NCBI GenBank assembly: GCA_021234155.1
Contig: JAJEKV010000057.1
Span: forward strand, 7,102,623 to 7,166,622
Length of the DNA stretch: 64,000 nucleotides
Source of the DNA: Isoetes taiwanensis
Taxonomy: Eukaryota; Streptophyta; Lycopodiopsida; Isoetales; Isoetaceae
Direction of reading: 5' to 3'
The position numbers and the translations under genes are program-made. Below are positions 19,555 through 64,000 of the stretch, in pieces. The stretch's first letter is position 1. Every line of letters begins with the position of its first letter. The notes beneath the pieces are model-generated. The model had not been told where the DNA came from. It was given only the letters and a program-made list of their open reading frames with translations, and did not search any database.

Positions 19555-19734
19555 CTAGTAACGGTGCCCAGCGTTGCTGGGCATAAGTTCGGCCTGTAAA
19601 TGTTTTGGCCGCAATAAGAAGGGCTTGCAGTAATAAGCCAACTTTTGTAACTTCTTATTATAACAATTTTTCTTTTCAAAGCTTTAACAATGTTTTCCAT
19701 GGATTATGTAAACAATATCAAAACAATAGGGAAG

Positions 19735-19751
19735 TGCCCAGCGTTGCTGGG
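19735..19751 (-). mobile_element. Second, degraded Helitron hairpin
   Basis: TGCCCAGCGTTGCTGGGCC lies 175 bases inside the 19555 end but lacks an adjacent CTAG. Paired 3' ends like this also occur at 42499 and 42904. Confidence 0.6.
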
Positions 19752-19759
19752 CCTAATTT

Positions 19760-23711: not shown

Positions 23712-23945
23712 TGATCATGCCCACATTGGACCTTGAAGGTCATGGAGCAGAAAATATTTACATTTGATTAATTCTCATAAGCAAACTACGATGAGAGTCC
23801 ACTGCCTTGATATACAAACCAAGATCGTGTGGCCTCATGCTAAGGACAGTATCAAGACACGATTCATCAATTCCAAACTTATCACGAATATCCGAGTATG
23901 CCGAACATCGTGTAAGTACGTGTGTCTCATCCTCTAATAACAATG
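23712..23945 (-). mobile_element. 5'-truncated LINE remnant, C-terminal zinc-knuckle region
   Basis: The minus-strand frame begins LLEDETHVLTRCSAYSDIRDKF, the usual form of the C-terminal segment of non-LTR reverse transcriptases (E.HVL..C..Y...R). It stops about 50 bases before the triplet tail at 23645-23711. RTE- or I-like LINEs commonly end in such microsatellites. All upstream parts (endonuclease, reverse transcriptase) are absent, as expected from 5' truncation. Confidence 0.6.
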
Positions 23946-25930
23946 TTTAAATTGAAATGCACTAATTTAAGAAGTGCGTTTGAAAGATTCCTTTATAAAA
24001 TGCAAGTCGTCTTAAGATTTAGCTAAAAAGAGGCTTTGGTTGTTTTTAACAAAAAAAATATGCTAAACTTCTCTTCGAAATAGTGATTTTGCCCAGACAT
24101 TTTAATGAAGTGAAATACCAAAAAATAAAAAATCCTATTTTTGGGGGTTATACAGACATTTTAATGAAGTGAAATACCAAAAAATAAAAAAAATCGTATT
24201 TTTGGGGGTTATACAAACCATGTTGCAAGCAAGTAAAACAACACATAGTAAAATCATGAAGATTAAAGCGAGATGTTTTGAATTCGTTCATGAGCATTAA
24301 GAACTACATGCTGTAGAAGCCATCCAAAAATATGATGTCACATGCAAGAGCAGTCTCAACCATAATATCCCCCTCTAATTTATGTTTCACAATGACGGAA
24401 TGTGCATGCTTTTTTCTTGGTGCATGCTGAAAGGATTGTATAAATTATTTGGCAAGATACCCTCAATCTGCATTTGCTGGAAAATATGGAAGGCCGCTTA
24501 GTAAGATCTATTTTGGGCATATGTAGAAATAATGATGGTCCAAGAAACCACATTTTCTCATTTATCCTGCATCTATGCTCTGCCATCTCTAATATCCCTG
24601 CACAGATCTGCATCTTTTCCTTTGTGATAACTTCCTAGCATGAAGGCACCATAAGACACCATTGCACGTTAGCAATACTAACACATGTTCCATAATTTGT
24701 TTTCAGGACTTTCATCACAAGCTATGACATCTTTGTCGTAATCAACTTAACTAGCCCTTTCCTTGTCTAATGATGAACTATAGCCCATTCAAGGCTGATA
24801 TCTGGGGAAAATCTTGAACTGCTGCATCACTAAAAGCTTATCCTTCTCCAGAAGCAATTTAAACTTGGTAACAAAATTTGCAGGTTGAGAATCTGGCATA
24901 CCTTTGTTGCACGTATTCTCTTGTTTCTACATCCAAAACAGCCAAAGAATGCATGAATCAAAGGCCGCTACCATTTTGTGCATGAGTTGGACCTTATCTT
25001 TAGTATAGTCTGTTAAAGTAGGCCATCCCCAGCCCTCTTAACATCCAGCCATCTTGCTATGAATATATTGTGTGCACAGTTGCACAAATTAGCACTGACG
25101 GTACGAGTTACTTAAATAAGAGCTAAGCACATAAGGTGACCAATTTGAAATTAATGATGCCCATAGTATCCCTTGCGAACTGCATATAAACTCAAGCTGA
25201 GGCCAAAAGCTGGAAATAGAATGACCCACTGACTTATATTTATTCTTCTACAAGCATCCACATATTGCATCCATGTGCTCTGAGGCATACAAAACATTTC
25301 TGATTTTACTTGTACAAACAGAGCAGAGGCAGATCATTTGTGAAGCTTTTAACCATCTTTCACATGCTTATGGCATGAAATCTAAGAAAAACGTAGCTTT
25401 TCTAGATCTGAGATATTGCTTTTGACATCATGCCGATCCAAATTTGTTACACCTTTCCCTTTTCCAATCCTTGGCTTCTAATCAAAAGTGAGACAAAAGC
25501 AGAGGACTTGAGGTGCGAAATTGCTATCATGCTGCTATAGATCTGCCTTTGGACTTGTTATTATCTGCTTCGTCCTGGAATGAATTGGCCAAAAGAAAAA
25601 CCTTCAGAAATCACAGATTTAGAGATGCATGTGAGTGTTTTCAAGATAAGATATGTCTCCGACCCTCTTACGAATGGCCAAAATATGAAGGCATGAATTT
25701 GATCGGGGACCGAGGCTCTATGCATAGACGAATCCAGAATAACTAGTGCCAATATCTATTGCAACCACGATCTTTTTGTGTCCCTGGAAGTCTATTTACC
25801 CTAAGAAATTTTCTTACTCCTTGAAAAGCATCAAACCTTCTTCAAAAGAATCAGACAAACTCTGGCCGCACCAAGAACCCCCTGGATCGAGAGATTGACA
25901 AAACCCTAAAATTTTTCTTGCACCAAAATT
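23946..25930. other. Unassigned AT-rich sequence
   Basis: Apart from the 58 bp duplication at 24095, I recognise nothing. Short frames on both strands have no motifs. Confidence 0.4.
24095..24212. repeat. 58 bp tandem duplication
   Basis: AGACATTTTAATGAAGTGAA starts at 24095 and again at 24153. Both copies continue through TTTTTGGGGGTTATAC with only small differences. Confidence 0.9.
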
Positions 25931-25940
25931 TCCTAGCCAC

Positions 25941-26340
25941 GGTATAGATTTATACCATCCGGATCCATTCGGGATGTAGATTAGATTTTGCCTCATTATA
26001 GCCAAGCAATGCCATGTTTCATCCATACAGTGTCATGTTATAACCATATATAAAGTTTCATTTGATGAAATTTCTATGCGTAAATAAAGCTTTATATTAC
26101 AAAAATATTCGAAAGGGAGCTCGTGGTATAAATTTATACCGTGGCATGGTATAAATTTATACCGTGGCGTGGTATAAATTTATACCGCTTGAGCTCATAT
26201 GCAGTATAAATTTATATCGCTCGAGTTTTCTTCCTGTATACATTTTTACCACGAGCTCACGCAGTATAAATTTATACCGTTTAGTGCAAAACAATATGAA
26301 TCTATATCTCTTGAGCTCCCGGACGGTATAAATTTATACC
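25941..26340. repeat. Array of 16 bp palindromes GGTATAAATTTATACC
   Basis: Exact copies start at 26125, 26148, 26171 and 26325. Variants lie at 25941, 26203, 26235 and 26263. The first three exact copies are spaced by 23 bases. Spacers often contain GAGCTC or a run such as CGTGGCGT. Each unit is a perfect inverted repeat. No coding sequence overlaps it. A binding-site cluster or a hairpin-generated expansion are both possible. Confidence 0.9.
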
Positions 26341-26345
26341 GTCCG

Positions 26346-27660
26346 ATGACATGGGAAAATTTAAAGCCTACGAACTGATACTAAAAACACATCATTTTAT
26401 GGAAGGGTCAGGTTGTATGGTTACCTGGCCATGTCCTGCGTACAAAATTATATAGCAAGTCGGCAACACATTTTGGGGCAAGGCGGAGCTTACAAGTTGC
26501 ATGTTGTAACTCAAATGTTACTAAGGTCAGAACTCGGATTGGGTGAACCACCCAAAATGGTTGTGAGAGATGTGATGAAGTTTTATTAGTAGACAACAAT
26601 GAGGAAGATCCACTTTTGATAGTGAGGCAGATGACATGAATAACTTTGGTGATCATGGTCTCAACGAATCAGACGAAGACATGCATCCCGATTTAGCCAC
26701 AAAACGTAATTTTGTTAAGAATGTTAAATGTACTATATTTTTTTACGATTTTGTTCATAAATTTGTAGTGATTTTGAAAAATCTGAATACCGTACCTTTT
26801 TGTTGCTCTAGTGCAATTGCTGTTTGTTTGAATGTCAAAATTTCTAGGGTCCTTAAATTTGTTAGTATTTCTTGTATCAAACTAGGGGGGCCAAAATAGG
26901 GTATCAAACAATTTTACATGTATGCTAAGCTCAAGTAGAAGCTCAAAAATGGTGTCTAAAATGTTGAAATTGTCACACTTGTCACAAATAGACCGCGAAA
27001 ATGGATCTTTTTTGGGGAATTTTAGGGAATCTTTTAAAGATTCCTTTTAAAGTGCATTTGGAGTAAATAAGTGCGTTTCAATTTAAACTCTGTTTAATGC
27101 CTGTTGGTCACAGAAAGCACAAATCCGATTCTCTCTTGGAACCCCTGCCCATCTGCCTGTCTCTATACCAAGATGATGCGAGAATATAATAGAGGAAAAT
27201 TGTCTATCCACATTCCTAGGGGGTAGTTGAGAATGTCGTAAGCTTATATTCTCATACCTCGCTCTAAAGTAACAAATGCACCATTGTCCTATTTAATGTA
27301 AGTTGTCATTGTTGAGGGCCAGGGCAACACGCATTGAGCATATGAATTTGCTGGAAACCCATCCAAGTTATAATGATATGTGATATTTCCTTATGTTCCA
27401 ACTACAACAGTTTGCATGACTTTCATAGACAGCATATATCTTGCACATTGTTATTTTCATCTTAGTAGTTGTGTTGTATCTTTGCATGCCATCTGCTGCA
27501 TTGGCTAGATGATATAGCTTCAAAGATCAGATTTCCATAAAAGTTCAACATCATCATCTGGATATCTGCGTTTCAAAATGTAGACACCAAGAAAAATAAT
27601 TAATCACAATATAACATTTCGAGTTCAACGCCAATTTTTAAATAATTATTACAAAACTAT
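26346..27660. other. Unassigned sequence
   Basis: No recognised gene. The words GCACTAATTTAAGAAGTGCG near 23957 and the reverse-oriented AAGTGCGTTTCAATTTAAAC near 27070 suggest a dispersed repeat, but its borders were not resolved. Confidence 0.35.
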
Positions 27661-46233: not shown

Positions 46234-46305
46234 GACCATGTGGCCTAATGGACAAGGCACTCGCCTCCGGAGCGAGAGATTATGGGTTTGAGTCCCATCT
46301 TGGTC
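46234..46305 (+). tRNA. tRNA-Arg (CCG)
   Basis: Identical in body to the copy at 43456, including CTCGC/GCGAG and the GGTTTGAG B-box change. Confidence 0.65.
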
Positions 46306-46608
46306 GGTTTGTTTTATGAGCTGAAGAACATAACTGTGAAGTTGTACCACAACTATAGTTTGATCGAGCAATGATAACGCTCTAAGGTTTGATTGATTAA
46401 GGTGTAAACCCTCTATAATTCATTTCTAAGTATGATTGAGTTTTGATCGAGCAAGGCATAATCCCTCTATAGATTTATGTCTAAATAGAATTAAGGTCTT
46501 ATTGCAGATCGACGCAACAGTAAAGTTTTGGTACAACTAAAGTTTCATCAAGCAAGGATAACTCCTCTAAGGTTTGATCGAGCAAAGCATCACCCCTCTA
46601 TGAATATA

Positions 46609-46734
46609 CTAGTAATGGTGCCCAGCGTTGCTGGGCATAAGTTGAGAGCCTGTAAATGCTTTGGGATGCAGTGAGAAAAGCCCTATCCCTTTCCCTTTTG
46701 CTCTATCCCGCATTTCAGTTTTTCTTATTTTCTC

Positions 46735-46772
<38 letters not shown>

Positions 46773-48664
46773 CCGTCTTTCTCACATGTTTCCTTGTTTT
46801 CCCATCCCTTTCCTTCCCCCTTCCCTGTTCCCGATAATCTTTTTCCCTTCCCTTTTGCTCCTTTCTCCACCTTTTCCCTCTTCTCTTTTTTCTTTGCCCT
46901 TTTCCCTTCCCCTTTCTCTTTTTTTATGCCTTCTCTTTCCCCACCCTTTTTCCATGTCTTCCTTTTTTCTTGACATTTTTCTCTTTCGCCTTTTTCCATG
47001 CCTATTTTTCCTTCTCTTTTCCTCGCCTATTTTTCCTTCTCGGTCGCCCTAAATCTGGTGGTCTAGAATATTTTGCCCTAAAATTTTAACGGCCACGATA
47101 GCTCAATGGCAAGATTATGAAGCTCAAGACCAAGAAAAAAAAAACCCCTGCTCTGGCGATGGCGATCTCCTCTTCAGCTCAGTGATAGCAATTTTGCAAG
47201 ACAAAACGGCTTCAAGGCCGCTATGGCTATGTCATGCTATAGTAAAGGCGGCTAGAATTACGTGAACTCAAGGTTTAGTTTGTAAAAAAAGAAATAGGTT
47301 TTCCTCTAGCATCAGCTATCCGTTATTGCTTTTCGGGAGCCATTACTTGGCAAAGAGCCACGAACTGGAGGGCTTCTGGCAGAGGATGCTTGAATAAAGC
47401 AATGTTTTTCTTTCATAAAATGTTAGCATCGGCAAAAACCTCAGCCATGTCTGGTTATGGCTTTTGCATACTGACGGGTTCCTCCTTTTCCCACTCTTTT
47501 CCTCTCTTTTTTGTGTGACCTTTTTCCTTCCATTTTTTTTTCTCCCTTCCGTTTTTCATGCCCTTTTTACCTTCCCTTTTTCCATCTCCTCACCCTTTCC
47601 CTCTTTCCCTTTTCCATGTTCCCTTTGTCTCTTCCCCTTTTCCATTTTCCTCATTTCCTTTTTCCCCTGCCTCTCTCTCTTTCCCCTCTTTTCCATTCTT
47701 TTTTCTTTTCTATTTCCCTTTTCCCATGTCCTTTTTCCCACCCTTTTCCCTTTTCCCCATGCCTTTTTGCCCTTCACATTCTCTCTTTCCACTTCCCTTT
47801 TCTTTTCCTTTCCCTTTTTTCTTTTTTCCCTTTTCCTTTTACCCTTTTCCCTTTTCCCCATGCCTTTTTGCCCTTCACATTCTCTCTTTCCACTTCCCTT
47901 TTCTTTTTTTCCCTTTTCTTTTCCCTTTTCCTTTTTTCCCCTTTTTTTTTTTTTTTACCTTTTTCTTTTTCCCTTTTTCCTTTTCCCCATGCCTTTTACC
48001 CTTTTCCCTTTTCCCCATGCCTTTTTCCTTTCACCACCCTTCCTCTTTTTCCTTTTCTTTTCTCTTTTTTCCTTTTTCCCTTTACCTTTTACCCTTTCCC
48101 TTTTCCCCATGCCTTTTTGCCCTTCACATTCTCTCTTTCCACTTCCCTTTTCCTTTTTTTCCCTTTTCTTTTCCCTTTTCCTATTTTCCCTTTTCCTTTT
48201 CCTTTACCTTTTTTCCTTTTTCCTTTTCCTTTTACCCCTTTCCCTTTTCCCAATGCCTTTTGCCCTTCACATTTCTCTTTCCACTTCCCTTTTCCTTTTT
48301 CCCTTTTCCTTTTCTCCCTTTTTTTTACCCTTTTCCTTTTTGCCTTTTTCCTTTTCCCCATGCCTTTTTCTTTTCCCCACCCTTTCTCTTTTTCCTTTTC
48401 TTTTCCCTTTTTTCTTTTTTCCCTTTTCCTTTTACCCTTTTCCCTTTTCCCCATGCCTTTTTGCCCTTCACATTCTCTCTTTCCACTTCCCTTTTCCTTT
48501 TCCCCCTTTTCATTTACCCTTTCCCCTTAAGAGACGCATGACCAATCACAGTGTTGGTAAGTCGTGCAATAAATCTAGGCCTTCGAATGCATCCAGATGA
48601 TCTCAGCCATTCAAATTAGGGCTCGGTGCACTACGCACTTACGGTATAACATTATAATATAAGA
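46609..48664 (-). mobile_element. Non-autonomous Helitron with pyrimidine tract, inserted in a tRNA unit
   Basis: CTAG and hairpin (46609-46635) form the 3' end on the minus strand, and ATTATAATATAAGA (ending 48664) forms the 5' end. The flanks GAATATA and TGTTTAAATACG join to the uninterrupted GAATATATGTTTAAATACG seen near 37880. This is a second, independent proof of A/T insertion. Its interior is again mostly pyrimidines, and its 5' subterminal sequence is homologous to that of the 17362-19527 element. Confidence 0.94.
46680..48530. repeat. Pyrimidine-rich tract with internal repeats
   Basis: From 47500 on, a module CCATGCCTTTTTGCCCTTCA followed by CATTCTCTCTTTCCACTTCC recurs near 47758, 47858, 48108, 48256 and 48458. 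The segment 46737-46772 is 36 consecutive T. Between 47046 and 47463 about 0.4 kb is of ordinary composition. The long F/P/S/L frames are composition artefacts. Confidence 0.93.
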
Positions 48665-49152
48665 TGTTTAAATACGTTCAAGGTTGGTCAACATGAAGCA
48701 TGGCATAACCTTATGAAGTTGGAGCATTAGTTGATTTTTTACATGTTGCTTACTTGGTTCTAAAATATAATATAAGGCATACATATCTCCATTATATTGA
48801 TTAAGAAGTAGGAGTGATTCGTAATATGTGAACCTGCCAAATTACGCCAAATTACTCTCTTTTTCTTTTTCTTTTCTCTTTTTTTGCGAAATACGCCAAA
48901 TTACTGTTGGATTATATTGAACAAAACCAAAGGTTTCATTAGGCGCAACACTGCAATCTGTACTAGGCATATAAATGAGCCATAAATCTTGTGTTCTTAG
49001 ATTCTTTTGGTCCCAAATCGATTACAAGTTAGTTTATGGTTTTCTATAGAATACGTCATAGGGATAGATTTAGCAGATGTATGAATTTTCTGGGATTGTT
49101 CTTATATACGGCTAGTTGTAAGGTTGATAAAAAAAAAATCCTTTTTGAGTCA
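48665..49152 (+). repeat. tRNA-Arg array, last partial unit
   Basis: It continues the unit broken by the Helitron through GAATACGTCATAGGGATAG to TTTTTGAGTCA, where homology stops just before the expected GGTTTAGATGG and tRNA. Confidence 0.9.
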
Positions 49153-49736
49153 AAATATGATAGCCATGGGAACATTCAATATAATAGATCTGCGAGTTAT
49201 ACTTTTGCATGTGCTATCCTCAAAGAAACTCAAAGACAAGAATGACAATGAAATGCATTAAGTTTCTGATGGTGATTGCAAAACCATGTGGGATATACAA
49301 AGAGTGGTTGAAAGAACCTTGATGTGCATTTCTTTGGGAAAGTTGTTCATCATGTAAAACATTTATTTACTTTATTTTACGCATCAGATCAAATTTTATC
49401 ATATCATACAATAACACTTCTATAGAATGGTTACCATCTCTACATATGTAGTTTCGTTTTATTGTGTCATTGCTAGAAAATCTATTCATCATATGAAGAT
49501 GATATGATGATTGTTATGTGATGGCTATCATCATTAGGTGATGATTGTGAGTTAAATGTAATTTGATCATTTTGGTTAGTTTCAAGACAGTTGAGTAGTA
49601 TGATGTTTTATTTTGGTTATGCCTCTATAAATTACATATTGGACTAAGTTATTTCTTCTATTATGTTGAGGATCATTGCAAACAAAATATTTAAGGCACC
49701 CAACTTCTGCCCAACAATGCTGGGCACCATTACTAG
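49153..49736 (+). mobile_element. Helitron fragment with plus-orientation 3' end
   Basis: It ends TGCCCAACAATGCTGGGCA, CCATTA, CTAG (49733-49736) before T. The 5' end is not recognisable at the left junction, and the flanks do not match the same point of the repeat unit, so a deletion probably removed part of the element and of the unit. ATCATATGATGAT-like words lie near 49488-49540. Confidence 0.6.
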
Positions 49737-49739
49737 TAT

Positions 49740-50650
49740 CTATATATTGGCCAAGAAGTACGAGGGATCCTTAAGATCTGAACCCGACATTAGTTTACTT
49801 TTTCTTTTCCTTTTTTCTGTTTTCTTTCCCAATTGGAAAATACGTGAAGGTATTGTATGGACAATATCGAAGAAAAACAAAGGTTTCATTAGGCACAACA
49901 CTGCAATCAGTACTAGGCATATAGATCAACTAAAAATCTTGTTTTCTTTTGGATCCAAATACAATACAAGTTGGTTAATAATTTTCTGGAGTATGCGCCA
50001 AAGGGATATATTCAGTATATGTATGAATTTTGTGGAATTGTTCTTATATACGGCTAGTTGCAAGGTGGATAAAGAAAAAATCCCTTTTGAGTCAGCTTTA
50101 GAGGGTTGCCTTACCATTCTTGTTTCTTACGCAAAAGAAAACAACCACCTATCATAGCATCGAGTGGAAAGCTAATATGTCATTGACCATGTGGCCTAAT
50201 GGACAAGACGCTCGCCTTCGAAGCGGAAATTATGGGTTCGAGTTCCATCTTGGTCGGTTTGTTTTATGAGGATGGTGATACTTCATGAACTTGCAGAAGG
50301 ACATAACTGTGAAGTTGTACTACAACTCAAGCAAGGATAACCTCTATAAGTTTTGATGGAGCAAGCCCTATATAATTAATGTCTAAATATGATTAAGGTT
50401 TGATCAAGCAAGGTATAACCCCTCTGTGGATTTATGTCTAAATACAATTAAGGTCTTATTGGAGATCGACATAATTGTGAAGTTGTACTACAATTAAAAG
50501 TTTCATCATGCAAGGATAACCCCTCTAAAGGTTTGATCGAGCAAGGCATAACCCCTCTATGGATTTATGTCTAAACACATTTAAGGTTGGTCAACATAAA
50601 CCATGGCATAACCTTATGAAGTTTGATCAAGTTGGAGCATTTGAAATACG
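49740..50650 (+). repeat. Diverged tRNA-Arg unit
   Basis: The order of blocks is that of the array, but identity is clearly lower (for example GGAGTATGCGCCAAAGGGATAT). It marks an older member at the array's edge. After about 50650 the similarity ends. Confidence 0.85.
50185..50255 (+). pseudogene. tRNA-Arg (TCG), diverged
   Basis: The anticodon arm reads CTCGCCTTCGAAGCGG with one base lost after it, so the lower stem pairs poorly. The T-arm has GTTCGAGTTCC. The A box is intact. Confidence 0.65.
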
Positions 50651-55565: not shown

Positions 55566-56853
55566 AAAAACAATACTATCCCATCCTCAAGTATTATCGC
55601 TTCAACAATCTTGTGCATATAGTCAAATTTTGATTCCTAGTTGATCTTATTTGTTTTGCTTTTTAAAATTTTTCGGCATACAGGAAGAAACGAAAGTACA
55701 ATTTTTGATGAAAAGGGGTCATTGTGAACCGATTACCTGCAGAGGTGAGAGTAGACAGACAACTTAGCACAATTTTAACAATTATTGTTCACTGTGCTAA
55801 TTCCTGTAGATATTTTACATTCATGCACTTTATTAGATCTGTCTCTTCTTTTCAGGTTTGTAGAGAATGGGAGTCAGCAGCCAAGCAGGTCATTACTAAT
55901 GTAAGACTGGTGCTTCTGCGTATGCAAGCAATAGTTCCTATAGCAGCTAGCTATGAAGACTTATGATGCATGGAAGGAATTAAACTCAGCTGATCTCATT
56001 TTCCACTTTAGTGAAGGTAGCATCACTTCCTTGTCAAAAATGTTTCATCTTTAACGTTATTTCAAGATTCTTGGTTTCCTTCACATATGATGTAGTGGCT
56101 ACTAGGCCAGTTGCATTGCGAGAAACTTATCAGGAGCTGATTATATGAATTCAATATTTCCTTTGCTCCATTATGTAACATGCTACTGTAGCAAGCACTT
56201 GAGCATCCGTGTACTTAAATTTATGCTAGCATGCAATAGAGCTCACCATGCTTATGCATATTATGCAATGCACGCAGAAATGAAACAAGATCTGTTGAAC
56301 AATCCCATTCTAGTTGTTGGCTGCAACTTAGTGTTGGTCAGCTTAAGAAGTATAGCTTGAAAGCATGACAAAGAAATATGAGTAGGATGTAAGCACTACG
56401 AGCATCTTGGCATGAAACAAAGTTGCGTATTAAACGGGAGCAAATCATCGAAACGAGAGCGAAAGGAATATTCCTCAAAGTTTCCCTTTTTTTTTTACAA
56501 AAAGGGGGTAAAATGAGGTTTAAAAAAAAAAAAGATGCATGAAATTCTATTTTGACCCCCCCAAAAGTGACTAATTTTTTTGTGCAACGAAAGAATTGAC
56601 TTTTTTAAAGTGTCATTTTTCTTAGCAAATAGAATGTTGTTGAAGTATATTTTACGAGAGAAACCCTAATTTCAGAGGATAAAATATTTAACAAAAAATT
56701 GAAGTTAGTCCAGAATCAAACTGTAGTATTCTCAAAATTTGAAGATAGAATCTTCATATTCACATGCAAAATTCTGATCTTTTTCTAAGACTCAGTTATG
56801 TGCAAAAGTATGAGGAGTGATGAAGGAAGGATCCAGGACGTCATCATGTTCAT
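55566..56853. other. Unassigned sequence
   Basis: Open pieces at 55724-55966 and 56145-56360 show no known motif; the first could be the exon after the sialyl motif, but it does not match the family. A run of T and A near 56485-56535 is noncoding. Confidence 0.35.
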
Positions 56854-57531
56854 TTATGCCATCCTCATCACCTTCACTTCTTTCACTGTCACTAGAGGAA
56901 GTGCTTGAGTTATCTTCCTCATCACTATCAACAGATGGTGTAGCATTGCCACCACCTTCTTCATCCTCTTCTTCGTAATTACAAGCTTTTTTTTAAGCAA
57001 ATTGATAGTCCTCGGCGTAGAGGCGATTGTCGATTTCAATTTAAAATCATAGCACAATATAGTCACGTCATTAAGGATCAACTCATCCCTACAACCCACC
57101 TTCTTGGACTTTCTCCCTTTTCCTTGGCTTCTCATTTCTAACTCATATCTACCTTCAAAAGCATTTTCTGAGCGTGTTGCAAGCCAATGAATCTTGAGTT
57201 TAGTGACTAAGCCTTCCTCCTTGACTGTGTCAAGCACTTTTGCTATCCAGAAAGGTCGACCTTTGTCATCCTCCTCAGTTGGAAGAGCAATTAGCATACC
57301 CTTGGTAATTTCTGTGATATTACCTTGAGGCTCATTCCTGCGTCTTGGTCCGAGGTACATGACTCGATCCTCGTCTTCTTCTCCGCGAGGTGCTAATGTA
57401 GCATTGCTTGGACTGCTTGGTCTTTGGGGTTGATGGAAGGTGTTAGGCCATCCAAATGGTTCTTGCAACTGTCTTAGAGCTATATTTTTCACAACAATTT
57501 TCTGTTCGAGAAAGAAATTACTCCACCACAT
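56854..57531 (-). pseudogene. C-terminal part of a DUF7869-type element protein
   Basis: The minus-strand frame reads ITKGMLIALPTEEDDKGRPF, WIAKVLDTVKEEGLVTKLKI, HWLATRSENAFEGRYELE and VTILCYDFKL. A compact beta domain with PFWIAKV...IHW.....GKY is common downstream of DUF7869 in plant element proteins, from memory. It is followed by a Lys-rich, then acidic tail. It lies 430 bases after the DUF7869 core in the same orientation, with stops and frame changes between. Confidence 0.5.
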
Positions 57532-57960
57532 CCGATCTTCTTCTAAGAAGTACTTAAAGCCTGAGGAAATTCCATTTTCAATGGCTTTTAAGGATGACTC
57601 TGAGGTACTTTTCTTACCTTGGACTCCTTAGGATTTTTGAGAGGAAGTTGCTCAAAGACGTTCTATGAAGGAAGTGTCCGGAATATATTTAAGAAAGCGT
57701 AATCCCTCGGTGGACTCAGTCCTTAGTTGTAGTATACTTCTTCCCTTGTAAGAAACTCGGCCATCCTTCAAGTAGAACTTGATATGATGTTGAAAGGTGA
57801 GATCATTCAACTTGTTCACGGCTTGTTCTCAATGCGAACGTTGAGAGAAAACAAACTCTCGAAATCAGCAGTCTCTTTAAGAAGATCGACCCTTTGGAGT
57901 AGGAGTGTAAGAATCTTCAATAATTGAACTAAAGAAGGAAGACGAAAAGCCTTCTTCCTT

Positions 57961-58398
57961 CTAAGGCATACGAAAAATCTGCTTTGAACATTTGGTCAAT
58001 CGATCATGAGTGTGTCCTACAAGTAAGAAACAGAGCTTCACTTTTCTAAAGATCCCTAGCTCCACTAACATGGCAAGATGCATAAAGAGTGTTTGATTCT
58101 TGTTCTCCCTTGTAGTATTGTCAAGTTGCGAGATAAAGCTTTGGCGGTAATTGCTCTTGCTCGCATGGGACCTTGTTAAGAATTGTAATTGTGAGGTTCG
58201 GGTCACCATGCAAGTTTGGATCGTCAAAAATACTTTGCACTTTAGACTTCCTTTGAAGACCATAGCTCCTACAAGGTGGACCTTAACAAAACATTCCTCC
58301 GGCACATCTTTAGGAATGTTCAAGAAATGTGGTAGAGTAGTTTTTTTTTGGTCCATTCCATCAATCACAATGAGACATATATTGCATTGGGCGTTCAA
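57961..58398 (-). pseudogene. DUF7869-type transposase-like core domain
   Basis: The minus strand encodes LIVIDGMDQKKTTLPHFLNI, then HLVGAMVFKG, and near the end QLDNTTRENKNQTLFMHLAM followed by LVELGIF and FLLVGHTHDRLTK. The invariant D-G-M-D-Q, DN..RENKN and VGHTH(D/E) blocks identify the family found in multicopy proteins of many plants and other eukaryotes, usually linked with mobile DNA. The block between HLVGAM and QLDN is shifted out of frame in places. The acidic residue set suggests an RNase H-like nuclease fold, but this is inference. Confidence 0.75.
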
Positions 58399-58639
58399 GA
58401 GCTTTTTTTTACGTGTTTGGCAAGCTTTCTTCTCTCTGGCGCTTGTTGTTCACGATGTCGGCAAGCAAGGTTACGTTGCACAATATCGTAGAAGAAATAA
58501 GGTCAAAGCATTTTTTTTTTTTTTAAAACAAGTGAGAGATTGAAGAACATGAGCTTACTTCTTTCGACCTCTGTCTTTGCGGTTTCTCTTTGACTTTTTA
58601 ATTACGCACACCTTGAGCAAAGCGGACATTACGTGTCTC

Positions 58640-59177
58640 CTCGAATTTTCACTAAACCGAATTCACTTTTCCACGGTCACGGTGAAGTGTGAGTAAGAGA
58701 TGTCTTTGAAGGCTGAGTGCAAGTCTCTTTGTACTCATTAAAAACATCTTTTTGGTGATGTTATCGGTTAAATGATACATGTTGCTATTAGGCGACTTCT
58801 CACATGTTTCTCTAAAATATTTCTCCATCCATGACACAAAGACAAGGGCATGCATGGTTACAACTCTTCTTGGTCCACAATGATCATCAATTCTTTGGAT
58901 TTTTGTCCGATCTTTTGTGTATTCTAGACATTCGGTGGACCCTAAGCGGTGGACAACCATAAAGCATTTCGGCAAACTTCTTGGCCGGTTAATGTAGTGC
59001 AAGAAGGTGTTGCTTGGTCGGCCTTACATGATAGGCCAAGTAGGCATTCTGGTCAGCCAATGTCATTGAAGCGTAGTTGTCTCTAATTGCTCGTAATTTA
59101 GACATGTTAAATTTGTTGATACAACCCAATGAGCGGCATTTACTTCTTAAAAGTCTTCTCATTTTATGCTCGTCCAT
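58640..59177 (-). pseudogene. N-terminal region of the DUF7869-type protein
   Basis: Two adjacent frames give CRSLGCINKFNMSKLRAIRD with a Cys-x3-4-Cys start and MTLADQNAYLAYHV, then INRPRSLPKCFMVVHRLGST and VTMHALVFVSWMEKYFRETC. DUF7869 proteins typically begin with C.C...CL..F....L...R......L....Q..YL.. and a later R....V..WL..Y....G...P. The order and spacing fit. One frameshift lies near 58992. Confidence 0.6.
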
Positions 59178-59327
59178 AAGGTTTCTTCTTCTTGGAGGAG
59201 GAGCATGCTCTCAAACTATAATCCACCTTGAATTTCTTGGTGGTGGCTAGAGAGCGTGTAATCTCGTTGCGCCGTTGGTGTCTTCATCTTGAAGAGAATT
59301 CTACTCACTGGGGTGACCTCCTCGCTC

Positions 59328-59999
59328 TTAGTGGTGTGCTTGTAGAGGAGAACAAACCACGTGAAAGTATGCCGGATAAAGGCGGAGGTGCGGTGTTGAA
59401 TGAAGGAGATGGGCCAGCATATGATGTGCGGTGAAAGTTGTTGTAGCGTCTTCACGGGGAGTTCGATCAAACATATCTCTTATAGCGGACTCGAAATTAC
59501 GCAAACCCATGTCACCACGTTTGTGTGAAGAGGAGTAGATCTTTGCGGGGTCGTCTTCATTTGTAGTGAAATCGTGATGGGAGAAACGATGGAGAATCTC
59601 GCGATCTTGAGCGTCTTTGTATTCTTGGCATGTGTAAGTGAAGATGGAGAAACAACAAACGCGGAGGTAGTCCGTTCCGAAAAATTTCTTTGAGGTCGAG
59701 CCATTGTAGTGTGGGGATGGTACAAATGGTGGTGGAAGATTGCTACGTGCAACAGGTGAGGGTTGGAAAGGTGGTGGCAGCCGGTTTCCCTCTTGGACTT
59801 GGAGAGAGGGCTGGAAAGGTGGTGGCGATCTACTAGTTCTTGGACTCGGAGTGTCTTCGAGAAGCAACAAAGACCTTGTCGAGGTAGGTGTTGAAGAAGC
59901 ATCTCCGTCTTGTGTTCCATCTGAAGTAGAGGTACTTGGGCAAACAAATGGTGGTGGAAGTTTGTTCACGAATCGGTTAACCATGTCAAACAACTGCAA
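59328..59999 (-). CDS. Proline-rich N-terminal frame upstream of the DUF7869 gene
   Basis: A 223-codon frame with repeated PPPF.PSP motifs (KLPPPFVCPS, RSPPPFQPSL, RLPPPFQPSP, NLPPPFVPSP) and Ser/Thr-rich stretches. It starts at 59999, just left of the palindrome-bearing spacer. It could be the first exon of the minus-strand element protein, but linkage is only by position. The last third has no motif. Confidence 0.4.
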   Translation of the reverse strand: MQLFDMVNRFVNKLPPPFVCPSTSTSDGTQDGDASSTPTSTRSLLLLEDTPSPRTSRSPPPFQPSLQVQEGNRLPPPFQPSPVARSNLPPPFVPSPHYNGSTSKKFFGTDYLRVCCFSIFTYTCQEYKDAQDREILHRFSHHDFTTNEDDPAKIYSSSHKRGDMGLRNFESAIRDMFDRTPREDATTTFTAHHMLAHLLHSTPHLRLYPAYFHVVCSPLQAHH

Positions 60000-60800
60000 G
60001 AAATTGTGGGCTTGTTACTAACTCACAAGTCGATTGGACTAATGATATTCGAGAATACAATTGCTATTCTGGAATAGTATTTTGTGTGCAGCATTTGCCG
60101 TGTGTGTGCAAAGATGCTATTCCAGAATACACTTATCCAGAGTGCTTGGACAAGACGGATTCCGCATCACATAGAAAAAGACAACTGACAGTGGCCTACC
60201 TTTAAAAAGGAAAATTCGAGCGCCTCAGTTGCGTATTCCGCTTTCAGAGATTTAGTCGCCAGCCCGAGCGCTTTCCGTTCAATATACATTTGCTGTATTC
60301 CGATTTACATAGCGAAAAGAATGGACAGGTAAGCATGTAAAGTACATAGTACGTCTTTCTTTTGTTCTTTGATTTGCTTCTGTAGGCCAAAGTGTATTCC
60401 AGAATACACTTTGCCCTTCGGGCGAAGAGCAAAGTGTATTCCGGAATACACTTTGCTCACTGGTAAAGGGCAAAGTGTATTCCGGAATACACTTTGCACT
60501 TGGCCAGTAAGCAAAGTGTATTCCAGAATACATTGTGCTTGTAATTTTTAGAGCGCTTGCTTTTTTGCACTAAGATAACGCACTTTTTAGCTGCAACATA
60601 CCACTTTTTAGGTTAAAAATAACACTTTCGAGTCCAAATAAGGCACAAAAAAACGACTTAGAGTGACAATATTTTAGCTTGTTTTCCTGTCTTTTCTTGG
60701 CCTTCTGGGCACAAGTTTAGTAAATGTTATTCTGGAATACAACTTTCGTTTGAATTTCTGTCTTGACAAGGTAGTTTTCAACGTTTCAGTGGCAGGGAAG
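60000..60800. promoter_or_regulatory. Divergent spacer with palindrome sites
   Basis: This spacer separates the minus-strand DUF7869 region from the plus-strand ParB-methyltransferase region. It holds single 12 bp sites at 60046 (TATTCGAGAATA), 60065 (TATTCTGGAATA), 60118 (TATTCCAGAATA) and 60728 (TATTCTGGAATA), half-sites near 60233 and 60293, and the four-copy array at 60389-60536. A shared promoter under control of an element-encoded binding protein is plausible but inferred. Confidence 0.4.
60389..60536. repeat. Palindrome array 1 (four copies)
   Basis: 24 bp units made of AAAGTGTATTCC and its reverse complement start at 60389, 60431, 60472 and 60513 (offsets 42, 41, 41). The middle two are perfect. 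The first and last have CCAG in place of the central CCGG, and the last has one more change. All are flanked by GC on the left or right so that the symmetry extends to 28 bp (GCAAAG...CTTTGC). Confidence 0.95.
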
Positions 60801-61318
60801 AAGGAAGCAAGAGGGCTTCAAAGAAATCTCACAAGCCTAAGCGTCCACACCCTCAGAAGCACACCGCTGACACAGACGCCCCCGCTATTTACGAGAATTT
60901 TCAAACGCAGTGGTTCGTGACGGGGGTGCGGATGGAAAATACTGGCCTGCCGACGTTTACATGCGTCGTAAAAGTCTTTGGTAACAAAAGGTACGCCGAC
61001 TCCGAGTTTGTTAACCTTGGGACAATAAAAGATGTCTCTGAGGTTGCCGGACAAGGAGGTCAGGTGGGGAGGCTTTTCTTCAAGACCTCCCAAGGCTTTA
61101 TTGTTGTGGACATCGCATTCTTTAAAATTGTCAGTGTGCAACCACCGGCACTATACAAATTTTTTTCACACTACCGGCTAAAACGAAGCCTGTGTTCATT
61201 AATTAGGCAGGTTTTTTCCAGCACAAGCGAGGACTTTCCTGTCAGTGAGTTCGAGCAATCAGATGGAGAAAGGTCACAATCACCACCTTCATTAGTTCTT
61301 GGGGAGGTCATCGGATAG
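60790..61318 (+). CDS. ParB-methyltransferase protein, N-terminal region
   Basis: After an acceptor-like TTTCAG, a Lys/Arg-rich start is followed by WFVTGVRMENTGLPTFTCVV, FGNKRYADSEFVNLGTI and FFKTSQGFIVVDIAFFKIVS. I recognise no family. The mixed strand/turn pattern suggests a compact beta domain. The frame ends at 61316, and the next open piece with similar character starts near 61390. The start codon is not fixed because an upstream exon is possible. Confidence 0.5.
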
Positions 61319-61389
61319 AGGTTCGAGGAACAAGGCGAGGAAGAAGACCTTTGTGCGACCAAAAACTTAGCAGGCCAAGGCAAGCGATA

Positions 61390-62161
61390 GCTGCTAAAGA
61401 ACCAAAAAGCGGAAGGTACAGGGGAGCTTGTGGTTCTTGAAATCGCGGAGGAACAACCAAAAACGAAGAAGGGAAAGGGCAAGGCTCCTGGGGTGGCCAT
61501 TAAAGAAAAGAAGGTGGACAAGACCTCAGAGAGGATGGAACAAATAAATCTTAACAAGTATGTTCAAGGGGTAATATACTTGCCAGTAACATCCATGAGG
61601 TTGCCACCAAAGAATGAAGCTGGTGAGCGCCCCCTTGAGGTTCGAAAAATCTATGCGCGACCACTTAAGAAACACGAAAGATAGAATAAGGAGCAATCCC
61701 AATGCCCACGTTGCTCCAATTGTATTCGTTCTTGTTTGAGATCCCAATGCATGGACCCCAAGGACTATGGCGGGGAAAATGCAGATACTTACATGCACTA
61801 CGTCCTAGGGGGTAACCACAGTTTTAAAGCAAGAAGGCAGTTGTACAAGGAGAAAAAGAACCCGAGATATCTTTACGTGCTTTCTGCTTGCCATTTTGAC
61901 TTTGCGACGGATGAAGAAGCGAAGATCGTTGCCAACACGCATAATCGCGACAACGAGTACAAGCTTAAAATGAGCTTCGTGGACAAAATCAGGTTCATGC
62001 ATAGGGAGTATATTATATTCAAAGAAAAATATGGAGAAGAATTGAAGAAACCAAGCAAAATCTCTAGAACTAAAGGAAGCGTGTCTTTGTGGAGTCTTTG
62101 CCTCAAATATGACGAGGCTAACAAAAGGGGTCTCTCATACCACATGACAACTGGTTTCAAT
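61390..62161 (+). CDS. ParB-like domain region
   Basis: A basic linker (KTKKGKGKAP) leads to YVQGVIYLPVTSMRLPPKN and GERPLEVRKIYARPLKKHER. After about 60 bases whose best frame reads HVAPIVFVLV, come YMHYVLGGNHSFKARRQLYK, YLYVLS, ANTHNRDNEYKLKMSFVDKI and RFMHREY. GGNHS.KARR at 61808 corresponds to the G.(H/R)R..A box of ParB/Sulfiredoxin-fold domains, and PIVF to the strand before it. ParB domains bind nucleotide and act with DNA-binding parts; fusion to DNA methylases is known in phages and plasmids. Stops at 61682 and 62162 are in the way, so frameshifts or errors exist. Confidence 0.55.
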
Positions 62162-62247
62162 TAGCCTTCAGAGGAGGCGGAGTAAGTTTCTTTTGTATTC
62201 GGAATACCCCCGCAACCATCCCATCGACATTGCTTGTTCTCTTGCAG

Positions 62248-62478
62248 ATATGGGACACGCAAAAGCGAAATATTTAGCATGTTTGAACGTGGTGAACTGA
62301 AAAGTAAAGGAAAGGTCGCCGAGAAGAAAAAGGGTTCTGACGTCCCTAAAAAGGAAATGACCATAACTGTGTGGAGAGAAATGCAGGGCTTTACAGACCT
62401 CGACATACTCGAAAGGCTTCTGCAGAAGGTTGTGGACAAAGAATTCACGCTTGAAGAAATGTCAAAAGAGCTGCACAA
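62248..62478 (+). CDS. Middle exon of the ParB-methyltransferase gene
   Basis: It is bounded by TTCTCTTGCAG and by CACAA before GTAAGA. It reads RYGTRKSEIFSMFERGELK, KGSDVPKKEMTITVWREMQ and DLDILERLLQKVVDKEFTLE, a helical, charged segment that suits the helical part following ParB cores. No family was recognised. A 66-base upstream intron (62182-62247) contains a shortened palindrome, TATTCGGAATA. Confidence 0.55.
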
Positions 62479-62909
62479 GTAAGAACTACAAAACATTCTT
62501 TCCCGCTTTTGTTAGTTTGGACGTAGTGTATTCCAGAATACACTACGTCTTAATTTGTAAAACAAAGTGTATTCCGGAATACACTTTGGCTTCGGAGTGT
62601 TAGCCAAAGTGTATTCCGGAATACACTTTAGCTTCAAGGAGGCAACCAAAGTGTATTCCGGAATACACTTTGGCCTTGGATTGTTAGTTAAAGTGTATTC
62701 CGGAATACACTTTAGCTTCGAAGGGTCAACCAAAGTGTATTCCGGAATACACTTTGGCTTGCATGCCTCGGCCACAGCGTATTCTCGAATACCCTTTGTT
62801 TACAAAATTTGAGATGCGTGTTCCAGTAAACCGTACTTCCTGTCGAGATGTTTCTTTTCCATGTTTTCGCCCTAATTTAACGTTTTTCTAATGTGGTTTT
62901 GTTTTACAG
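62479..62909 (+). other. Intron carrying palindrome array 2
   Basis: The donor (AA before GTAAGAAC) and acceptor (GGTTTTGTTTTACAG) are strong, and both neighbouring exons are open. About 280 of its 431 bases are the palindrome array. Frames through the array (KCIPEYTL repeats) exist on both strands because of its symmetry and are not proteins. Confidence 0.65.
62521..62797. repeat. Palindrome array 2 (seven copies, 42 bp period)
   Basis: Copies of the 24 bp unit start at 62523, 62564, 62606, 62648, 62690, 62732 and 62774. Offsets are 41 once and 42 five times. Five copies are perfect; the first has CCAG in the centre with ACGT-extended symmetry, and the last is degraded. Spacers are 18 bp and mostly begin GGC or AGC and end GCC or ACC, so symmetry often extends beyond the core. 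Confidence 0.96.
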
Positions 62910-63048
62910 CCAAAAAAATGTCATCACATGTCAAACATGCTTGATGGAACAACTTAACGTTGACAGCTGGGACAGATGTAAAGAACTTTACCCCATCGCA
63001 ACCTCGAACGAAAGGATAGTACAATACGCTCCTAATTTTGAAATTTGG
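62910..63048 (+). CDS. Exon after array 2
   Basis: It reads QKNVITCQTCLMEQLNVDSW, DRCKELYPIATSNERIVQYA and PNFEIW before GTAAGT. The CxxC pair (CQTC) followed by a third Cys may bind zinc. The frame stays open through the possible donor to 63168, and the only nearby acceptor would give a 45-base intron, so splicing here is doubtful. Confidence 0.5.
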
Positions 63049-63093
63049 GTAAGTTTAAGAGTTTCTTGTTTTTGGGTTTCTTGTGTTACAAAG

Positions 63094-63552
63094 GCGATTG
63101 TTTTCGCGAGTAAAAAGAAAAATAAGGACTGGGAGGGCTTCATGCATCTTGTCGGGACGGTAGCGTGAGGAGAGGGCGGCTCTTGGACAAAGGCGTGTTT
63201 TGGACAATGAGCCCTCCGAAGTACGAACACTTTACAATGTTTGATCAAAACAACATGTTACAGTATAGTACACGGTGGATCGCACCAAACCGGGTAAAAC
63301 AATAAAGCCCCAAGATTTTACGTTGGTAGTAGCTGACCTTCCTTACGGTTCAAGCTCAAAGGCGGCCCTTCTGACGACCAGCCTTTTAAGAACTCGAGTT
63401 TAATGCATTCGTCGGCGGCATAAAGAAGATTACCACGGCAAAACATTGGAGGTTGGTTGTATTTCACTCCGGCATGCAGGCGGCCTTGTGGAAGCCAATT
63501 TCAAGACTCATTTTGGTTCCCCACGCAAATTTGGTTATGAAAACATGGTTTG
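63094..63552 (+). CDS. Amino-methyltransferase, catalytic half (motif IV)
   Basis: WEGFMHLVGTV and, in shifted frames, MSPPKYEHFTMFDQNNMLQY, then DFTLVVADLPYGSSSKAALL, FNAFVGGIKKITTAKHWRLV and VVFHSGMQAALW. DLPYG at 63335-63349 is a D-x-P-Y motif of the (D/N/S)PP(Y/F) type that binds the target amino group in N6-adenine and N4-cytosine DNA methyltransferases. FHSGMQ lies where a strand after motif IV is expected. Two frameshifts and a stop (near 63304 and 63400) interrupt it. It ends before GTAAGC at 63553. Confidence 0.65.
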
Positions 63553-63603
63553 GTAAGCAATTATTCGGAAAACGTTTTCTATACGGAATATGTTAGGAGT
63601 TTC

Positions 63604-63615
63604 TATTCCGGAATA
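63604..63615. repeat. Single palindrome site in an intron
   Basis: TATTCCGGAATA is the exact core of the arrayed palindromes, here alone. TACGGAATA-like half words lie 30 bases upstream. Confidence 0.85.
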
Positions 63616-63665
63616 CGTTTCTTTTCTGGCGTACTTAAACCCTCTCTTATGTTTTTGTTCTTAAG

Positions 63666-64000
63666 GTACAAAACAAACATAAATTACCATGGCGGAGGCC
63701 CTAGGCATTGAGTAAGGTCGAATATCTCCACATTCGCTTCTTGGAGTTTTGATGGAAAGCGTGCAATGGAACACTTCAACACGGCGGCGTGCGGAACTTT
63801 TCGAGCGTGTTGGAGTTTCCGGCGGTTTTTTGCGAAGCTGCGGGACCCTAGTGCGCAGGGAAGAATAGTGAATCACTATCGAAGCCCACGAAGTTGATTA
63901 ACCATCTTCTGGACATGTTCTCACGTCCAGGAGATTGGGTGCTCGACGCATTTTCTGGCTCTGGTACAACTATTGCTTGTGCACTTAAGAAGGGCCATGA
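63666..64000 (+). CDS. Amino-methyltransferase, AdoMet-binding half (motifs X and I), cut by window end
   Basis: After an acceptor (GTTCTTAAG; the 113-base intron holds a perfect TATTCCGGAATA at 63604) the region contains KPTKLINHLLDMFSRPGDWV followed by LDAFSGSGTTIACALKKG. KP..L...L.....PGD.VLD.F.GSGTT is the classic motif X to motif I passage of class beta N6/N4 methyltransferases (PF01555 type), with the AdoMet loop DAFSGSGTT at 63945-63971. Motif IV before motif I is the beta-class order. The start of this exon has frame changes, and the C terminus lies outside the window. Confidence 0.8.

What the first reader, a model, noticed from the sequence alone, without database searches (positions are those of the whole stretch)
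60000..64000. ParB-like domain plus DNA amino-methyltransferase in a plant mobile-element context
One plus-strand region encodes, in order, a ParB-like GGNHS box, a helical segment, a possible zinc CxxC, the catalytic DLPYG motif and the AdoMet loop DAFSGSGTT. Introns with standard borders suggest it is a eukaryotic gene and not contamination. ParB-methylase fusions are known from phages and plasmids; a spliced version beside a transposon-like gene in a plant would be a notable capture. It could modify adenine N6 or cytosine N4, either to mark the element's own copies or to regulate them.
Basis: partly seen in the sequence, partly recalled or inferred. Interest (0 to 1): 0.92.

Follow-up and report, generated by a model that had tools for sequence, protein, structure and literature searches.

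The report
Transposon-borne ParB-like DNA methyltransferase in quillwort
A jumping-gene family in a land plant (most likely the quillwort Isoetes taiwanensis) carries its own DNA-methylating enzyme of bacterial or phage type, together with rows of short mirror-image DNA motifs that differ between branches of the family, so the motifs are ready-made candidates for where an element protein acts.

Summary
The 60-64 kb region is half of an 8.3-kb DNA transposon (56416-64691, ending past the window): AACA...TGTT inverted termini, 4-bp target duplication, a minus-strand DUF7869 transposase-like gene and, divergently, the reported six-exon gene. The window copy is a frameshifted pseudogene; relative L028 is open throughout (946 aa): ParB-like region, helical and CxxC segments, beta-class N6/N4 methyltransferase. 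The host is probably Isoetes taiwanensis; contamination is excluded. ParB-like and methyltransferase parts are under strong purifying selection (median dN/dS about 0.04). New here: arrays of a palindrome, TATTC-CG-GAATA, often 41/42 bp apart, in the divergent promoter and introns (263 sites in 165 kb element-side, none in 113 kb outside). Two sister-subfamily elements (L120, L121) and a deleted element in the same window (23939-27094) carry GTAT-RAATTY-ATAC instead. ParB-methyltransferase passengers are already reported in brown, green and red algal transposons, so the kind is known; the land-plant host and the palindromes are, as far as I found, new. ParB membership is not established (no Pfam match, Box-II Arg replaced by Ser, weak fold). 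That the enzyme reads the palindromes is inferred; the transposase is the main rival.

The parts
56416..64000 (.). DNA transposon (8276 bp; runs on to 64691 in the same contig, past the window). 5' AACA...TGTT 3' termini
   Evidence: Right end placed in 18 of 20 other copies, left end in 2 of 20 (L013, L029); terminal inverted repeat and 4-bp duplication
56412..56415 (.). Left target-site duplication ATGA (right copy ATGA directly after 64691, outside the window)
   Evidence: same 4-bp rule in L013 (CTAA) and L029 (ATCC)
56416..56440 (+). Left terminal inverted repeat AACAAAGTTGCGTATTAAACGGGAG
   Evidence: right partner ends at 64691
56792..59984 (-). Transposase-like gene with DUF7869 (broken in this copy; start codon at about 59984)
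   Evidence: DUF7869 E 3.4e-20 in ORF 57961-58449; relative in L028 E 1.5e-51; start by homology; split over several frames where L028 has one 572-codon frame
60046..60129 (.). Divergent promoter palindromes TATTCNNGAATA at 60046, 60065 and 60118 (62, 81 and 134 bp upstream of the transposase ATG)
60321..60328 (+). Methyltransferase gene exon 1 (ATGGACAG)
   Evidence: homologous to L028 exon 1
60395..60739 (.). Intron 1 palindromes (60395, 60437, 60478, 60519, 60728)
60790..62181 (+). Exon 2: N-terminal domain, linker, ParB-like region with GGNHS box at 61808-61822 (frameshifted here)
62248..62478 (+). Exon 3: helical segment
62529..62791 (.). Intron 3 array of seven TATTCNNGAATA palindromes, 41/42 bp apart
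62910..63048 (+). Exon 4: CxxC segment
63109..63552 (+). Exon 5: methyltransferase motif IV DLPYG (frameshifted here; acceptor CAG lost)
63604..63615 (.). Intron 5 palindrome TATTCCGGAATA
63666..64000 (+). Exon 6: AdoMet motif I DAFSGSGTT (continues to stop at 64335, outside the window)
   Evidence: PF01555 E 1.2e-10
23939..27094 (.). Second, deleted element with sister (L120-type) terminal repeats AACAATGTTTAAATTGAAATGCACT..., 4-bp duplication TAAT/TAAT, and a short stretch that by eye resembles the transposase C-terminus
   Evidence: no tblastn match to the methyltransferase or transposase queries at E 1e-3
26126..26339 (.). Five GTATAAATTTATAC palindromes of the sister type in that deleted element
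   Evidence: expected 0.01

Best explanation
The region is the right half of an 8.3-kb cut-and-paste DNA transposon with a DUF7869 transposase-like gene and a divergently transcribed, six-exon passenger gene for a ParB-like amino-methyltransferase (here called M). Shown: element ends, target duplications, two-gene layout, an open relative, purifying selection on M, and palindrome arrays that were seen only in elements and differ between subfamilies. Inferred: M is the element's own sequence-specific modification and regulatory protein. It would dock as a dimer on the palindromes in the shared promoter and in its own introns through its ParB-like, helical and target-recognition parts, and methylate adenine N6 (less likely cytosine N4) there, so that the element tells its own copies from others and sets the activity of the transposase and M promoters. 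The window copy itself is dead.
For: AACA...TGTT ends with 4-bp duplications in 5 of 5 elements for which I could place both ends: window ATGA, L013 CTAA, L029 ATCC, L120 CTAC, second window element TAAT. L028 encodes an uninterrupted 946-aa M with five GT-AG introns; MTase: PF01555 E 9.4e-18, PDB phmmer best CcrM 1.3e-9, then MboIIA and RsrI, phrog_67 E 5.2e-27. Motif order IV then I and D-[LI]-P-Y fit the beta class and lean to N6-adenine (motif rule recalled). Median dN/dS: ParB-like 0.046 (19 pairs), exon 3 0.028 (23), exon 4 0.033 (13), MTase 0.038 (22), DUF7869 0.212 (39). Palindrome: 14 window hits with up to 2 mismatches, 0.13 expected, all inside the element; 263 hits in 164.8 kb element-side, 0 in 113.2 kb outside; in L028, of 17 hits with up to 3 mismatches, 3 promoter, 13 intron, 1 beyond the transposase's 3' end, 0 in M exons; 2585 exact 18-bp sites genome-wide, reversed control 0. 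Sister subfamily: another palindrome in the same promoter and intron places of L120; the deleted window element has the sister palindrome with the sister TIR. Of 13 exact GGTATGAATTCATACC sites genome-wide, 5 lie within 5 kb of a listed PF01555 or DUF7869 match, one being L120 itself, though each list shows only 150 places.
Against: No binding, methylation or expression data. ParB-type profile matches are sub-threshold, the AlphaFold model of that region has mean pLDDT 45, and the Box-II arginine is Ser in 9 of 9 sequences of A2. Helical phasing is uneven: L120 plus L121 fit 10.5 bp (n=8, R 0.95), but with two tandem-duplicate spacings R is 0.67 (n=10), with the deleted window element R is 0.75 (n=12), with everything 0.57 (n=14), and that element alone does not fit (n=4, R 0.42); in the main family without 40-43 bp spacings R is 0.38 (n=64), distinct values only p about 0.13. 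Array spacing can come from tandem duplication. The central CpG is TG or CA in 115 of 249 units, as expected if host 5mC still reaches it. Only L028 among 21 sequences has exon 2 in one open stretch by the test used.
Confidence: 0.5

Rival explanations
1. The palindromes are read by the DUF7869 transposase (or another part of that protein), as internal binding sites or enhancers, in the way subterminal motif arrays of plant CACTA or hAT elements are (comparison recalled); M does something unrelated to them.
For: Palindromes and TIRs change together between subfamilies. Palindromes occur in L121, where no M was found in the fetched stretch, and in a deleted element in which only a transposase-like remnant was seen. 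A GGAATATTCC palindrome made of the same GGAATA half lies 49-50 bp inside the left end in 4 of 5 elements.
Against: Main arrays are internal, in M introns and the divergent promoter, not subterminal. The TIR motif AAACGGGAG does not resemble the palindrome.
Confidence: 0.28
2. The palindromes are host-factor or RNA-level elements (promoter boxes, intronic enhancers, hairpins in introns) or simply minisatellites spread by slippage, with no role for an element protein.
For: They sit in promoters and introns and form tandem arrays with 41/42-bp units.
Against: The core is nearly invariant while spacers are not (hits were picked by similarity to the core, which inflates this). Present in subfamilies whose MTase silent sites are saturated against each other. 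A different palindrome occupies the same places in L120. None found outside elements in 113 kb.
Confidence: 0.15
3. M is an anti-silencing or immunity device acting on the whole element (6mA as an active mark, or blocking 5mC), without need for the palindromes.
For: Strong constraint on the catalytic part. The title of PMC12695648 links adenine DNA methylation to permissive chromatin (search listing only).
Against: CpG decay in 115 of 249 palindromes suggests host methylation wins in the long run, though old copies may have lost M.
Confidence: 0.2
4. Bacterial or viral contamination, or a single domesticated host gene.
For: The protein type is prokaryotic or phage-like.
Against: Introns, target duplications, and 1443 first-look candidates (150 scored, all matching) dispersed over contigs of up to 53 Mb in a plant genome.
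Confidence: 0.01

Closest known systems
Sola1-1_Ec32 ParB plus N4/N6 methyltransferase passenger (Ectocarpus, PMC12477816; passages read)
   Same: DNA transposon; gene on the strand opposite the transposase; ParB-like plus amino-methyltransferase; about 1000 aa
   Different: 21.5 kb brown-algal element; the word palindrom- does not occur in that paper's text; relation of its transposase to DUF7869 not testable here; ours is in a land plant with subfamily-specific palindromes
Green and red algal ParB-methyltransferase transposon proteins (Iyer 2011; Petroll 2025; only the reference entries seen)
   Same: Cited by PMC12477816 as similar transposon-encoded proteins
   Different: Not read; sequences not available here
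Phage ParB-N6/N4 methyltransferase fusions (PMC12704722 passages; L038, L039 and relatives here)
   Same: Same domain order, beta-class MTase; ParB parts align at GGNHSFKARRQL / AGHTRLKASLKL
   Different: About 410 aa, one uninterrupted frame, 24% identity in the MTase; phage sequence has Arg where M has Ser in that box
Bdelloid N4CMT (PMC8885841; passages read)
   Same: Captured permuted PF01555 amino-methyltransferase with introns in a eukaryote, acting on transposons
   Different: Host gene with a chromodomain, not carried by a transposon; the term ParB is absent from the text
Retrotransposon-borne cytosine methyltransferases (PMC5890265; passages read)
   Same: Mobile elements carrying a DNA methyltransferase; purifying selection reported for one family
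   Different: C5-cytosine enzymes in LINE, DIRS and Gypsy-type retroelements; the term ParB is absent from the text

Membership tests
Beta-class (permuted) N6/N4 amino-methyltransferase, PF01555 | Profile match above curated cut-off | tested here: met
   65.4 bits, cut-off 26.7, residues 762-850 of L028; 42.1 bits in the window copy
Beta-class (permuted) N6/N4 amino-methyltransferase, PF01555 | Catalytic DxPY before AdoMet FxGxG loop | tested here: met
   DLPYG in exon 5 (DIPYG in L014, L029, L120), DAFSGSGTT in exon 6
ParB/Srx NTP-binding fold | Profile match (PF02195) | tested here: not met
   No match at E up to 10 or 5. Related leads only: DUF6551 in 7 of 9, best E 0.0022; phrog_723 ParB-like in 5 of 9, best E 0.026
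ParB/Srx NTP-binding fold | Conserved Box-II arginine needed for NTP binding (per PMC12704722 passage) | tested here: not met
   GGNHS in 9 of 9 of A2; GGTHS in L120
ParB/Srx NTP-binding fold | Fold | tested here: inconclusive
   AlphaFold mean pLDDT 45.2, pTM 0.35; not searched against structures because too weak
TIR DNA transposon with 4-bp duplication (as reported for Sola2 in PMC3627910, passages) | TIRs and 4-bp target duplication | tested here: met
   5 of 5 elements with both ends placed; in L020 the left terminus was covered but not found, its homology starting 57 bp inside
Sola superfamily | Transposase homology to Sola reference proteins | not testable with these tools
   Repbase not held; DUF7869 occurs in no held paper
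Algal ParB-methyltransferase transposon passengers | Sequence homology of the passenger protein | not testable with these tools
   Algal sequences not at hand; protein database switched off. Architecture and divergent orientation match the description only

The most novel reading that the evidence does not exclude
A eukaryotic transposon lineage carries its own ParB-like modification enzyme with matching parS-like palindromic arrays: each subfamily has its own palindrome, read and methylated by its own M, giving a self/non-self recognition system that partitions transposon subfamilies within one plant genome.
Probability: 0.37. Interest if true: 0.92.

Novelty: new variant of a known kind. Interest (0 to 1): 0.74.

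Why it matters
Transposon-borne ParB-methyltransferases have been noticed in algae, and PMC12477816 suggests that they bind and modify their own element, but I found no report of what they bind. Here a land-plant family offers an open gene, strong purifying selection on the enzyme, and predicted target sites that can be tested on sequencing data. If M marks its own palindromes, plants have a transposon-encoded DNA modification system beside 5mC, with subfamily-specific self-recognition that works like a restriction-modification methylase or a ParB-parS pair.

Tried and rejected
1. TAG read as Gln: in-frame TAGs in the window looked like a recoded alga; the best HSP70 genes of the same genome are open in the standard code, and L031 ends GPKIEEVD; copy L015 lacks those TAGs. 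So the TAGs come from frameshifts.

2. Bacterial contamination: rejected.

3. Close phage, giant-virus or prokaryote relatives: viral-contig scans with the MTase and ParB-like parts as single proteins and with the ParB-like alignment confirmed no relative; the MTase alignment gave three distant loci, 24-30% identity. One prokaryote scan with the ParB-like alignment gave none. Phage records matched the MTase part only in the 30 of 365 records listed, at most 27.7% identity; the ParB-like part alone gave no phage match at E up to 1. These scans see close relatives only, so they do not date or place the origin.

4. Structure of the ParB-like region: model too weak to use. One of two structure jobs was wasted on a 56-residue piece.

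5. Marchantia 4mC enzyme as a relative (recalled): its name is in no held paper; not tested.

6. Genome-wide TIR count: unanswered; count of GGTATAAATTTATACC: unanswered. Copy number is only bounded (150 scored of 1443 PF01555 candidates; 2585 palindromes). DUF7869 has 9903 first-look candidates, so many elements may lack M; not resolved.

Literature searches made; only PMC CC0/CC BY/CC BY-SA papers are held, so absence of a land-plant report is not proof.


Full report
WHAT WAS CHECKED. All three reported intron starts (62182, 62479, 63553) are right; two more introns start at 60329 and 63049, and four of five introns keep GT...AG. The reading frame is broken in several places in this copy; comparison with other copies shows lesions, not another genetic code.

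THE GENOME. The window is contig C1064:7102623-7166622 of a 1,658,258,908-base genome in 1110 contigs. The best HSP70 genes read in the standard code and L031 ends GPKIEEVD, a land-plant type (recalled). The Isoetes taiwanensis assembly is reported as 1658.30 Mb in 204 scaffolds plus 909 contigs (PMC8566536, passages), so the host is very probably that quillwort; this is an inference.

THE ELEMENT. Comparison with 20 other places (L011-L030) places the right end at 64691 in 18 of 20 and the left end at 56416 in L013 and L029; most other fetched stretches do not reach the left end, L011, L012 and L030 are truncated or differ, and in L020 homology starts 57 bp inside the left end. The ends form an inverted repeat AACARRGTTGC...; the flanks carry 4-bp duplications: ATGA in the window, CTAA in L013, ATCC in L029. 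Hence an 8276-bp DNA transposon. It has two divergent genes: a DUF7869 gene on the minus strand (E 3.4e-20 in the window; 1.5e-51 in L028) and, on the plus strand, the gene of the finding, called M here.

AN OPEN RELATIVE. L028 has M without stop or frameshift: six exons, five GT-AG introns, 946 aa. Among 21 sequences (20 copies plus the window) it alone has exon 2 in one open stretch over 93% of its length; others show stops, splits, gaps or truncation there. By the same test exon 3 is open in 17, exon 4 in 15, exon 5 in 13 (one of them, L024, only 44% identical) and exon 6 in 16 of 21. M consists of an N-terminal domain, a charged linker, a ParB-like region (231-452), a helical exon, a CxxC exon and a beta-class methyltransferase (PF01555 E 9.4e-18; PDB phmmer best CcrM 1.3e-9, then MboIIA and RsrI). 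D-[LI]-P-Y and these matches lean to adenine N6, but the domain has switched repeatedly between 6mA and 4mC (PMC8885841 passage), so the base is not settled.

IS IT ParB? Weak. No PF02195 match. DUF6551 matches 7 of 9 members with best E 0.0022, the first member's score being under the cut-off; phrog_723 (ParB-like) 5 of 9, best 0.026; phrog_30771 (no function given) 7 of 9, best 2e-4. The PDB search with the alignment found nothing. Profile comparison with 27 phage ParB-methyltransferase fusions (27 of 29 picked from the 80 loci) aligns GGNHSFKARRQL to AGHTRLKASLKL, E 0.09. The arginine of that box is Ser in 9 of 9 and in L120. PMC12704722 (passages) says that changing this Arg abolished nucleotide binding, so binding by M is doubtful. 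I call it ParB-like, not ParB.

SELECTION. Nei-Gojobori dN/dS over pairs of 12 chosen copies. Pairs with dS below 0.25, saturated dS or too little overlap were dropped, leaving 13 to 50 of 66 pairs per part. Medians: ParB-like 0.046, exon 3 0.028, exon 4 0.033, methyltransferase 0.038, N-terminal 0.196, linker 0.144, C-tail 0.145, DUF7869 0.212. Pairs share copies and are not independent, the parts were compared at different dS, and some ParB-like pairs include frameshifted stretches, which raises dN. With that, the catalytic and ParB-like parts were held more tightly than the DUF7869 domain.

THE PALINDROMES. A feature the finding does not mention: TATTC-CG-GAATA, often within GTGTATTCCGGAATACAC. 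In the window 16 exact-core matches lie at 60046-63615 (0.14 expected) and nowhere else in 64 kb. Over the 20 copies and the window region, 263 hits with up to two mismatches lie in 164.8 kb of element-side sequence (this includes some left flank) and 0 in 113.2 kb outside; 19 of 20 copies have 4 to 21 hits, the truncated L030 none. Successive hits are most often 41 or 42 bp apart (32 and 72 times). In L028, of 17 hits with up to three mismatches, 3 are upstream of the transposase ATG, 13 in introns 1, 2, 3 and 5, 1 beyond the transposase's 3' end, none in M exons. The central CpG reads CCGG in 107 of 249, CTGG in 65, CCAG in 50, the decay expected of 5mC. Both gene starts could be placed in 6 of 21 sequences; each has two or three sites between them, at 62/81/134 bp from the transposase start in the window and L017, 73/93/113 in L028 (in L021 the matched start differs and the distances are 352-424). 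The whole genome has 2585 exact 18-bp sites; the reversed control has none.

CO-DIVERSIFICATION. DUF7869 has 9903 first-look candidates, 150 scored, all matching. The first and fifth of that list, fetched as L120 and L121, carry a sister transposase (74-75% identical in the domain). L120 has a sister M (ParB-like part 50% identical, exon 5 44%, exon 6 66%, one in-frame stop), ends AACA...TGTT with CTAC duplicated and a different inner TIR. In L121 no M was found in the 3.3 kb held beyond its promoter sites. Neither has a TATTCNNGAATA core. Both carry other palindromes of the frame GTAT-N6-ATAC: L120 has nine with AATT in the middle, two before the transposase start, four in what I take as intron 1 (M start read by eye at 7174), three in intron 2; L121 has five before the transposase. 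Genome-wide GGTATGAATTCATACC occurs 13 times (reversed control 0); 5 of 13 lie within 5 kb of a listed DUF7869 or PF01555 match, two of them (C1037, C1059) 4.4-4.6 kb from a PF01555 place, as in L120. For the other 8 the 150-place lists say nothing.

PHASING. L120 plus L121: n=8, R 0.95 at 10.5 bp, the best of ten periods tried; with two tandem-duplicate spacings n=10, R 0.67, p 0.011; with the deleted window element n=12, R 0.75; with everything n=14, R 0.57, p 0.01; that element alone n=4, R 0.42. Main family without 40-43 bp spacings n=64, R 0.38; distinct values only n=37, p about 0.13. Suggestive, not proof.

A SECOND ELEMENT IN THE SAME WINDOW. At 23939-27094 lies a 3156-bp element with L120-type terminal repeats and TAAT duplicated, a stretch that by eye resembles the transposase C-terminus, and five GTATAAATTTATAC sites at 26126-26339 (0.01 expected); no tblastn match to M or transposase queries. 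In this window each palindrome type is found only in the element with the matching TIR type. This is one pair, not a survey.

HOW IT PROBABLY WORKS. M is likely a self-directed modification and regulatory protein of the element. It would bind palindromes in the common promoter and in its introns and methylate there. Whether the mark opens the promoter, represses it, or marks DNA for the transposase is not known. The chief rival is that the transposase reads the palindromes: TIR and palindrome change together, L121 and the deleted element have palindromes without a detected M, and a GGAATATTCC sequence sits 49-50 bp inside the left end in 4 of 5 elements. On rechecking I lowered the main reading from 0.55 to 0.50, the novel case from 0.40 to 0.37, and raised this rival from 0.25 to 0.28 for these reasons.

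KNOWN OR NEW. PMC12477816 (passages and part of the reference list) describes a 1104-aa ParB plus N4/N6 methyltransferase gene opposite the transposase in Ectocarpus Sola1-1 and cites green and red algal cases; it proposes that they bind and modify their own element. Our case has the layout described there; homology could not be tested. New, as far as the ten literature searches show: a vascular-plant host and subfamily-specific palindrome arrays. Hence new variant of a known kind.

Noticed in passing
window 23939-27094: Second transposon of the sister type, internally deleted, with its own palindrome type and TAAT target duplication.
   Followed up: yes
window 16001-20000 and 46001-50000: Strong strand asymmetry: GC skew -0.60 and AT skew -0.57 at 18001-20000, weaker at 46001-50000, i.e. 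pyrimidine-rich stretches on the plus strand.
   Followed up: no
window 1-6000: GC 57-59% against 35-44% in the rest of the window; a different kind of sequence, not examined.
   Followed up: no
left ends: window 56465, L013, L029, L120: A GGAATATTCC palindrome, made of the same GGAATA half as the main array motif, lies 49-50 bp inside the left end in 4 of 5 elements looked at; absent in the deleted element at 23939.
   Followed up: partly
L028 (reverse complement 165-1880) and L120 3643-5442: Transposase C-terminal part has a shared stretch of the kind PFWIAKVIDTVKEEGL...KIHW that looks like a Tudor/chromo-type reader by eye; Pfam names only DUF7869 for this protein.
   Followed up: no
64648-64676, past the window: Short hairpin ACGGGAGTG...CACTCCCGT next to the right TIR, with variants in the right ends printed.
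   Followed up: no
L038, L039, L040-L119: A common phage family of about 410-aa ParB plus N6/N4 methyltransferase fusions in IMG/VR (263 relatives confirmed in one scan, 80 kept).
   Followed up: partly
G000:C1068, C1055, C910, C1029: Clusters of many full and broken HSP70 copies on the same contigs.
   Followed up: no
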